A stretch of 64,000 nt of DNA, taken from positions 3,310,001 to 3,374,000 of the forward strand of contig CP026657.1 of the NCBI GenBank assembly GCA_023525915.1. Reading direction: 5' to 3'. Of the stretch, positions 18,566 to 40,068 are shown piece by piece (the first letter of the stretch is position 1; each line of letters begins with the position of its first letter). The notes below the pieces were generated by a model. It worked only from the letters and a program-made list of their open reading frames with translations. It was not told the DNA's origin and did not search any database. A program made the translations under genes and the position numbers. The DNA comes from Acetispira formosa (nom. nud.) (lineage in GTDB: Bacteria > Desulfobacterota > Desulfarculia > Adiutricales > Adiutricaceae).

Positions 18566-18683
18566 TGTCTAACTGATTTCTTAGCAATGGCGACTAGTTG
18601 GATGAACAAGAACGTTACCTGAATGGATATGCCCCATTTTTATCAAACACTGATGCTTTTGCCTCGGTCATCGCGGAGCAGGG

Positions 18684-19104
18684 CAATGGCTTGAAACGAC
18701 AAAGGTAAAACGCGGAGGACGGTGCGGTGAGATATCTCCATAGTGGCCCCCGATTTTTCTCTGATCCCGGCCGGGTGGCCTCATAAGAGGTTTGATAGTC
18801 CGTGCCCGTCCGGGGAGCAAAAATCGTGGTCCCCTCTGGAGAAATCTCACCGCCCCGCCCTCCTGGTCTTGGTCGGCTCATGTAAGAAAACCGCAACCGT
18901 CATCCTTACCAAACGCCGACACTGGCTAGGCCGGGCGGGCGAAAAATTTTCTGTAAGTCGCTCGAAATTTTGCTCCCCGGACGGGCACTGACAGACAGAA
19001 TGCCATTAAAGCCACTCGGCCGGGAATACGAGAAAATTACGAGCGACGTCAGAAATTTTTTCGCCCGCCCGGCCGGGTTTTACCTTTGCCGTTTCAAGCC
19101 ATTG
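18684..19104. repeat. R3 long-palindrome element, double-hairpin copy
   Basis: This 421-bp element is bounded by 28-bp inverted ends (18684-18711 and 19077-19104, one mismatch, beginning caatggcttgaaacg). Inside are two long imperfect hairpins. The first has arms about 18712-18760 and 18814-18863; the second has arms about 18927-18970 and 19028-19076. Their loops are the same sequence in opposite orientation (cccggccg near one arm, gtgcccgtccgggga near the other). The arms differ in sequence yet pair. A 70-bp segment between them recurs in the copy at 39800-40068. Short frames here are by-products of the palindromes. Confidence 0.8.
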
Positions 19105-19238
19105 TTCTTGAGCGCGGCTCATTTGTTGTTGACAAATGGAACGCCCGCATTGTTTCCTGACCGAAATAGCTAAGAAGGCCGTTTTTTTTACAGCGCTGAA
19201 CATAGAGACTTTCAAGAATATACCAAGTGGTCATGAAG

Positions 19239-19443: not shown

Positions 19444-20535
19444 CTATTCAGCGTTTGAATGCCTGGCTTCCATAACCATCGGCGGCAGCGGAGCAAGGCG
19501 GCACGGGCTGAACAGATCCAGTTCCGGCTGATAAGCCCTGGTCTCAATTTTTAGAAGGCCGGCCAGGGAATGGAACAGGTTGTCATGAGATTGCGGTCGA
19601 TCGCCCGCTTGTTTAAGGCAGTTATAATCAACCCGGCTGTTCCGCTTCATCACTTCCGACATCCACAACACCATCGGCACCTGTTTTTGATCCGGCGGGG
19701 CAATGCTGTATGGCAGGCCATGCCAATAGATGTTATTTTCACCCAAAGACTCGCCATGATCAGAAACATACATAAGGCCGGTTTCAAAGCGCGGGTATTT
19801 CTTCAAGGCCGCAAGGGCCCGGCCCAGAACATGGTCGGTATACAAAATGGTATTGTCATAGGTGTTGACACTAGCCTCCGGCGATCAGTTTTGCACTTCG
19901 CTGGTGTCGCAGGTAGGATGGAATACCTTGAACTCCTCAGGGTGCCTTTTGTAATACGAAGGACCGTGGCTGCCGATAGTGTGAAGAACGATCACAGTGT
20001 CCCGCTCGAGCTTGTTCAGAATGTCTTCCAGCGGATCGATCAGAGCTTCATCATGGCAGTACCCGTCCTCACGGTATCTGGGATCCTTCATTGCCGCCAC
20101 GTCTATGGTCGTTACCCGCGAGCAGACTTTTTTGCAGCCGTCGTCATTTTCCAGCCAGATCACATCGTAACCCGCGCTGGACAGAAGATCGCGAATGTTC
20201 TCGCTATAAATTGCGTCATTGAGATTAAACTTTTTTCGCGGCATTACGGAAAACATGGCGGGCAAGAAAATAGCGGTGGCCGTGCCGCTGGCCGCCACAT
20301 CAGAGAAGTTGACCACATCCTCCCCGCCCAGCCGGGGATTGGTTTCGCGGCCATAGCCATTGAGGGAAAAGTTCATGGCCCTGGCTGTTTCACCCACCAC
20401 CAGAACGAATACGATAATGCCCTGGTCATGGCCCGGCTGGCGGCGGACGTTTTCATCCAGGCGCACAAATTTTCGATTGGCCAGGGCCTGGCTGCTCAGG
20501 CTGACTTTAGTCAATCGCTGATATATCGCTTTCAC
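19444..20535 (-). pseudogene. eptA: Phosphoethanolamine transferase EptA, truncated and with an in-frame TGA
   Basis: Only the periplasmic catalytic domain of an EptA/PmrC-type lipid A phosphoethanolamine transferase remains. VVGETARAMNFSLNGYGRETNP, the nucleophile region SGTATAIFLPAMFS, HTIGSHGPSYYKRHPEEF and SDHGESLGENNIYWHGLP are all recognisable. The N-terminal five-helix membrane domain (about 200 residues) is missing, because the frame is closed by a stop just before the GTG at 20535. A single in-frame TGA (about 19887) separates CDTSEVQN from SPEASVNTYDN. Relatives have a conserved cysteine there, so TGC to TGA is the simplest explanation. It lies divergently beside a two-component system of the kind that often controls this gene. 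Confidence 0.85.
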
Positions 20536-39676: not shown

Positions 39677-39799
39677 GGCGGCCTCACCTTCATGTTGTCC
39701 CGAACGAACAATTATCAGTGCGTGTCAGGGCACCGCAAATCAAAGATATATCTTACCATGCTTCAAAGCAATTTGTAATACATACGAATAATGGGGCCA

Positions 39800-40068
39800 G
39801 GGCAGCCGCTTGGAAACGGCAAAGATAAAACCAGGCCGTGCGGGCGGAAACTTTTATGAAAGGCACTGACGTCGCTCGTAATTTTCTCTGATTCCCGGCC
39901 GGGTGGCTACATCGGCGGTTGGTGAGTGCGTGCCCGTCCGGGGAGTAAAATTACGAGCGACTTACAGAAAATTTTCCGCCCGCACGGCCTGGTCAGTGTC
40001 GGCGTTTGGGTGGGGTGACGGTTGCGGTCTTCTTTTTGTGAGCCGACCACGTCCTTCTGGTTTTACCG
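39800..40068. repeat. R3 long-palindrome element, single-hairpin copy
   Basis: The copy starts with a diverged form of the R3 end (cttggaaacggcaaagataa) and holds one long hairpin with arms at about 39833-39889 and 39942-39990. Its loop is the R3 loop (attcccggccgggtggc ... gtgcccgtccggggag). A tail follows at 39991-40068 that is the reverse complement of the segment between the two hairpins of the copy at 18684. The arms pair well but differ from those of the first hairpin there. Confidence 0.75.

What the first reader, a model, noticed from the sequence alone, without database searches (positions are those of the whole stretch)
18684..19104. R3: paired long palindromes with a conserved loop and different, still pairing arms
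Two hairpins in this element and one at 39833-39990 have the same loop ends (cccggccg and gtgcccgtccgggga). The arms of the first hairpin (gtgagat ... cccgattttt) are unlike those of the other two (cgcccgc ... cgctcgtaatttt), yet each set pairs over about 45 bases. Selection for pairing, not for sequence, is the simplest reading. The element has 28-bp terminal inverted repeats and no gene, so it may be a non-autonomous mobile element recognised as a single-stranded hairpin.
Basis: seen in the sequence. Interest (0 to 1): 0.7.

Follow-up and report, generated by a model that had tools for sequence, protein, structure and literature searches.

The report
Mobile element with two paired hairpins
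A 430-base gene-less mobile element, present in at least 92 copies between the genes of one bacterium and not found elsewhere in the collections searched, carries two long DNA hairpins whose halves have changed together so that they still pair; the transposable element is of a familiar kind, but why the hairpins are kept so strictly is not known.

Summary
The element (window 18679-19109) is one of at least 92 copies in this genome. It is a non-autonomous, MITE-like transposon with terminal repeats CAGGGCAATCGCTTGAAAACGGCAAAGGTAAAAC and a 9-11 bp target duplication in the better-preserved copies. It is lineage-specific: none in 147 related genomes, plasmids, phages or viral contigs. Hairpins A and B are inverted paralogues with the same outer flank (AAAGGTAAAACC), inner flank (TGGTC) and apex but different arms. 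Across copies the arms differ by 2-5%, loops by 34-38%, middle by 23% and outer termini by 47-57%. In hairpin B, 12 of 48 pairs changed on both sides (shuffles 2.4, 0/500 reach it), with almost no G-U intermediates. Polymorphic sites elsewhere are in linkage equilibrium; the one strong long-range association joins two paired bases. So pairing is maintained in a family that recombines. A Y1/HUH single-strand mechanism is not supported: a hairpin-free 117-bp relative with the same termini has a perfect 10-bp duplication, and the Y1 genes are not associated. The most likely reading is a DDE-mobilised MITE whose hairpins are kept for something other than transposition, or by palindrome-directed recombination. 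The transposase and the role of the hairpins are unknown.

The parts
18679..18701 (+). outer terminal inverted repeat, A end (CAGGGCAATGGCTTGAAACGACA)
   Evidence: alignment of copies and TIR pattern hit at genome 3328679
18702..18713 (+). conserved inner flank of module A (AAGGTAAAACGC; consensus AAAGGTAAAACC)
   Evidence: about 6% divergence from consensus, against 40% in the outer TIR; shared with module B
18714..18864 (+). hairpin A (arms about 45 nt, conserved apex CCCGGCCGGGTGGC / GTGCCCGTCCGGGGAGC, 22-nt variable loop core 18780-18801)
   Evidence: fold z -7.4; arm divergence 1.6-4.7% against loop 34%
18865..18928 (.). middle segment between the hairpins (23% pairwise divergence, no covariation); insertion site of an IS110-family element in at least four other copies
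18929..19074 (-). hairpin B, inverted relative to A (same apex, different arms; variable loop core 18989-19010)
   Evidence: 12 of 48 stem pairs with changes on both sides across 75 copies
19076..19109 (-). terminal inverted repeat, B end (GGTTTTACCTTTGCCGTTTCAAGCCATTG; outermost 5 bases decayed)
39798..39832 (+). terminal inverted repeat of the second copy in the window
   Evidence: L061
39833..39988 (+). hairpin B of the second copy (variant with a 10-nt insertion in its 5' arm)
39989..40067 (+). middle segment and remnant of the A end of the second copy (hairpin A deleted), ending in GGTTTTACC

Best explanation
It is one copy of a lineage-restricted, high-copy miniature transposon. Shown: ~34-bp terminal inverted repeats, a 9-11 bp target duplication in the better-preserved copies, no gene, at least 92 dispersed copies, almost all intergenic. 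Inferred: it was moved in trans by a DDE-type transposase that recognises CAGGGCAATCGCTTGAAA ends, whose gene I could not find in this genome. Its cargo is a pair of inverted paralogous modules, each a long hairpin with a fixed apex, fixed bases and a variable 22-nt loop core. Shown: base pairing of the arms has been maintained through paired changes while copies exchanged segments freely. Inferred: the hairpins are kept not because the TIR transposase needs them but because the folded form matters, most likely as a DNA cruciform or hairpin (or as a strictly paired stem in transcripts), with ectopic recombination between copies spreading variants.
For: Copy number and dispersal. Target duplications adjacent to the termini in L016, L021, L030, L042, L076, L079, L091 and a perfect 10-bp one at the hairpin-free relative L105. 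Region-wise divergence: arms 1.6-4.7%, loops 34-38%, middle 23%, outer TIR 47-57%; the 24-mer of the B arm is exact in 82 copies, has one mismatch in 7 and two or three in none; 45 of 46 hits ascertained by the middle segment alone lie at copies that carry the B arm. Covariation in B: 12 pairs changed on both sides, 57 cells, 0/500 shuffles, 0-3 pairs when slid; all 91 copies: 68 cells, 15 types against at most 5 in shuffles. Hairpin A: 9 double-change types against a shuffle maximum of 7. r2 falls to background within ~25 bp, and the only strong long-range association is a base pair of stem B. Young copies L021 and L079 share termini, A half and middle but differ in B. Middle singletons rise with TIR decay (rho 0.39, p 0.009), arms do not. 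Intergenic placement, both orientations equally.
Against: No transposase with matching ends was found, so the DDE assignment rests on termini and duplication alone. Target duplications are recognisable in only about a tenth of copies. Selection for pairing cannot be cleanly separated from arm-to-arm templated correction of palindromes, since changed pairs skip the G-U stage (1 G-U against 68 double cells). Mosaicism means low arm diversity could partly reflect homogenisation. A direct role for the hairpins is not shown by anything here.
Confidence: 0.62

Rival explanations
1. Pairing is kept by a mutational process, not by selection: template switching or hairpin-directed repair copies changes from one arm to the other, and breaks at the palindromes (SbcCD-type) feed ectopic gene conversion between copies, which produces the mosaicism.
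For: Paired changes with almost no G-U intermediates, and clusters of adjacent paired changes (L099, L033, L081); mosaic copies and linkage equilibrium; hairpin A has been deleted in many copies at differing junctions.
Against: Fixed mismatches within a few bases of the changed pairs persist in nearly all copies (AAAAAATTT against AAAAATTTT resolved in only 3 of 91). Correction alone does not slow divergence of the arms relative to loops. Unpaired intermediates persist at one pair (T-C in 11 copies).
Confidence: 0.25
2. The hairpins act in RNA, as mRNA processing or stability elements (RNase III substrates) like Correia or ERIC elements.
For: Very stable RNA fold (z -15); many copies lie within 30 bp of a stop codon (18 of 51 flanking 3' ends against 3 of 82 flanking 5' ends); RNase III processing is reported for Correia elements (PMC10969869, PMC2649163).
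Against: G-U intermediates almost absent while A-C singles are present, the opposite of what wobble-tolerant RNA selection predicts; no preference of orientation in tandem gene pairs (14:14); the 3'-end bias is also what avoidance of promoters would give.
Confidence: 0.2
3. A REPIN-like element: inverted hairpin pair mobilised as single-stranded DNA by a RAYT/Y1 transposase.
For: Inverted pair with conserved stems, variable centre and compensatory changes, as described for REPINs (PMC3116915); two RAYT-like genes in the genome.
Against: The RAYT-like genes are not flanked by the modules; 9-11 bp target duplications and long terminal repeats; a relative without hairpins has moved with the same termini.
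Confidence: 0.07
4. The hairpin unit (GGTAAAACC to GGTTTTACC) is the mobile part and inserts into palindromic targets, so that the outer repeat belongs to the target.
For: Sharp inner boundary and very variable outer repeat.
Against: Left and right outer flanks of one copy resemble each other no more than those of different copies (0.346 against 0.335); no unoccupied targets of that sequence apart from the two MITE relatives; duplications lie outside the outer repeat.
Confidence: 0.05

Closest known systems
Prokaryotic MITEs (Correia/CREE, ERIC, QMITE2 of Coxiella, Chunjie of Geobacter; PMC10969869)
   Same: Under 500 bp, gene-less, terminal inverted repeats, direct repeats fading in older copies, intergenic, stable stem-loop fold; QMITE2 has 7-9 bp direct repeats and, like this element, serves as a target for IS110/IS1111-family insertion.
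   Different: Two separate long paralogous hairpins inside the terminal repeats, sharing apex and bases but not arms; arms far more conserved than the termini; base-pair covariation against a background of linkage equilibrium.
REPINs / RAYT (PMC3116915)
   Same: High-copy extragenic inverted pair, conserved stems, variable centre, compensatory changes on both sides of the hairpin.
   Different: 430 bp rather than about 100 bp, two hairpins instead of one, terminal repeats with 9-11 bp duplications, no RAYT gene at the repeats.
IS200/IS605-type (Y1) elements with subterminal hairpins
   Same: Hairpins just inside both ends.
   Different: Long terminal inverted repeats and target duplication; hairpins dispensable in relatives with the same ends; no Y1 gene with such ends.

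Membership tests
MITE (non-autonomous DDE-type transposon) | short, gene-less, terminal inverted repeats, multiple dispersed copies | tested here: met
   only short ORFs across the element
MITE (non-autonomous DDE-type transposon) | target-site duplication of constant length | tested here: met
   9-11 bp next to the termini in seven copies and a perfect 10 bp in the relative L105; not recognisable in most older copies, including the window copy
MITE (non-autonomous DDE-type transposon) | autonomous parent with the same termini (usual, not required) | tested here: not met
   no terminus pair around any gene; 11 PF01609 loci lack matching ends. The parent may have been lost
REPIN/RAYT | RAYT (Y1) gene flanked by the repeat | tested here: not met
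REPIN/RAYT | inverted pair of conserved stems with compensatory changes | tested here: met
Y1/HUH single-strand transposon | no target duplication; hairpin ends required | tested here: not met
CREE/ERIC-like RNA-processing element | transcribed and cleaved by RNase III | not testable with these tools
   no expression data
Known Rfam RNA family | match above gathering score | tested here: not met
   best 28.5 bits against a threshold of 297

The most novel reading that the evidence does not exclude
The paired hairpins are a structure-selected DNA module in their own right: a freely recombining population of about 160 hairpins in one chromosome in which DNA base pairing, not transposition and not RNA structure, is the trait under selection, recognised by an unidentified host or element factor that reads the fixed apex and bases and ignores the 22-nt loop.
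Probability: 0.2. Interest if true: 0.75.

Novelty: new variant of a known kind. Interest (0 to 1): 0.52.

Why it matters
A family of 92 copies in one genome gives a natural experiment on palindromes: nearly every site is in linkage equilibrium while paired bases stay associated across a recombining loop. That makes it possible to test whether chromosomal palindromes are kept by selection for the folded form or by templated repair, and in DNA or in RNA.

Tried and rejected
(1) Y1/HUH or RAYT partner: nine Y1 genes found, none with these ends. (2) Autonomous DDE partner by terminus pattern and by PF01609: none. (3) Hairpin unit inserting into palindromic targets: flank test negative. (4) Relatives elsewhere: none in 147 relatives, plasmids, phages or viral contigs; in the genome collection one 19-mer chance hit (Hymenobacter). 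(5) Rfam: none. (6) Structured middle segment: no covariation. (7) Empty-site comparison with same-genus genomes: best matches to the flanking gene are only 32-35% identical, so not possible. (8) L112 as an example of an unpaired arm decaying: it is a variant arm, not a decayed one.

Full report
OBSERVATION. The element, its two hairpins and the third hairpin at 39.8 kb are in the sequence as described. The termini reach further out than reported: CAGGG at 18679 on the left and about 19109 on the right. The whole strand folds into a terminal stem with three branches: hairpin A, a small middle stem and hairpin B (z -15). The apical motif occurs 143 times in the 4.68-Mb genome, against 1 for the reversed control.

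COPIES. Collecting copies by the apex, by the A arm, by the B arm and by the middle segment gave 92 elements with hairpin B. Of these, 43 are like the window copy; 19 have a different, longer A loop of about 170 nt, which is itself well conserved; 19 lack hairpin A, including one that is a half element next to an IS110 copy; 4 are split in the middle by an IS110-family element; the rest are partial. Only two A hairpins without B were seen (L101, L102). Apart from the inserted transposases, only weak gene calls overlap two copies. Copies lie closer to stop codons (18 of 51 within 30 bp) than to start codons (3 of 82), with no orientation preference. No relative was found in 147 related genomes, plasmids, phages or viral contigs, and in the genome collection only one chance 19-mer hit.

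MOBILITY. The better-preserved copies end in CAGGGCAATCGCTTGAAAACGGCAAAGGTAAAAC and are flanked by direct repeats of 9-11 bp, for example CCTAACCCT (L016), CCCGGACCG (L021) and GATGTGCCC (L079). A 117-bp relative (L105, genome 684861-684977) has the same 17-bp ends, an AT-rich centre, no hairpins and a perfect 10-bp repeat GGTAGCGGTA. A copy without hairpin A (L091) also shows a duplication. So the terminal repeat is what a transposase uses, and neither hairpin is required for movement by it. That pattern fits a DDE transposase acting on double-stranded ends. No gene with such ends was found, and the Y1/RAYT genes of the genome are not associated.

TWO PARALOGOUS MODULES. Aligned in the same orientation, A and B share AAAGGTAAAACC at the outer base, TGGTC at the inner base, the upper arm and the apex, and differ in the middle of both arms while each still pairs.

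CONSTRAINT. Among the 43 complete copies, mean pairwise difference is 1.6-4.7% in arms, 3-6% in apices, 34-38% in loop cores, 23% in the middle and 47-57% in the outer termini. The 24-mer AAATTACGAGCGACTTACAGAAAA has 82 exact copies, 7 with one mismatch and none with two or three. This is not an effect of how copies were found: of 46 hits picked by the middle segment alone, 45 lie at copies that carry it. Decay of the two termini of a copy is correlated (r 0.43), so it probably tracks age; unique changes in the middle rise with it (rho 0.39, p 0.009), while those in the arms do not.

PAIRING. In hairpin B, 12 of 48 pairs show changes on both sides across 75 aligned copies, 57 cells in all, against 2.4 pairs and 15 cells in shuffles (0/500); sliding the partner by 1-3 bases leaves 0-3 such pairs. 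In all 91 intact copies there are 68 double-change cells of 15 types. Hairpin A gives 9 double-change types against a shuffle maximum of 7. The middle shows none in excess. G-U intermediates are nearly absent (1 cell, against 23 A-C), which argues against selection acting on wobble-tolerant RNA pairing. Pairing alone is not the whole constraint: the inner arms hardly vary, and fixed mismatches beside the changed pairs persist in nearly all copies.

RECOMBINATION. Polymorphic sites more than about 25 bp apart are in linkage equilibrium (r2 0.023, equal to permuted data; about 95% fail the four-gamete test); the one strong long-range association, r2 0.63, joins two paired bases of stem B. The youngest copies L021 and L079 have identical A ends and perfect duplications and share the A half and middle, but differ in hairpin B. 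Copies are therefore mosaics, and pairing is preserved across a recombining loop.

MECHANISM. Shown: mobile unit with terminal repeats and duplications, dispersal, maintained pairing, mosaicism. Inferred: mobilisation in trans by a DDE transposase, now missing; maintenance of the folded form at the DNA level by selection (preferred) or by template-directed palindrome repair (about one in four); exchange between copies by ectopic recombination, which palindrome breakage could stimulate. An RNA role is possible but less favoured. A REPIN-like single-strand mechanism is unlikely.

COMPARISON. It is a MITE by structure (PMC10969869) and resembles REPINs in having an inverted pair with compensatory changes (PMC3116915), but it fails the RAYT association and has duplications. 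Insertion of an IS110-family element at one site in several copies parallels IS1111 in QMITE2 (PMC10969869) and IS targeting of REP sequences (PMC1525189).

LIMITS. Double changes count sequences, not independent events.

Noticed in passing
L031, L032, L094, L103 (genome 2020 kb, 2314 kb, 2084 kb, 2234 kb); half at L096: An IS110-family element (DEDD transposase, PF01548/PF02371) is inserted in the same place in the middle segment of at least four copies: a repeat used as its target, probably guided by its bridge/seek RNA.
   Followed up: partly
L105:462-578: 117-bp AT-rich MITE with the same termini and a perfect 10-bp duplication; L106 holds a one-ended relative.
   Followed up: yes
L098 / L119, genome 3086105: An IS200-like Y1 element lies within hairpin B of one copy.
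   Followed up: no
L120, L121 (genome 3755 kb, 1606 kb): Two RAYT-like 221-222 aa Y1 genes in the genome, not flanked by this element; their own REP-like repeats were not looked for.
   Followed up: partly
altloop copies, e.g. L035:729-905: About 20 copies carry a different, well conserved loop of roughly 170 nt in hairpin A, itself partly palindromic (CGCAAAAAGCGTGGTTTTTGCTTCGCG).
   Followed up: partly
L023, L031, L061, L075, L076, L078, L079 against L034, L040, L059: A 10-nt insertion (GCCTTTCGTA / TACGAAAGGC) is found in the 5' arm of hairpin B in some copies and in the 3' arm in others, never in both.
   Followed up: no
noA copies: Hairpin A has been lost in nearly 20 copies at differing junctions, while loss of B is rare among A-bearing copies.
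   Followed up: partly
window 19444-20535 (-): Two neighbouring reading frames (19444-19845, 19885-20535) look like pieces of one sulfatase/phosphoethanolamine-transferase-like gene, possibly a broken gene.
   Followed up: no
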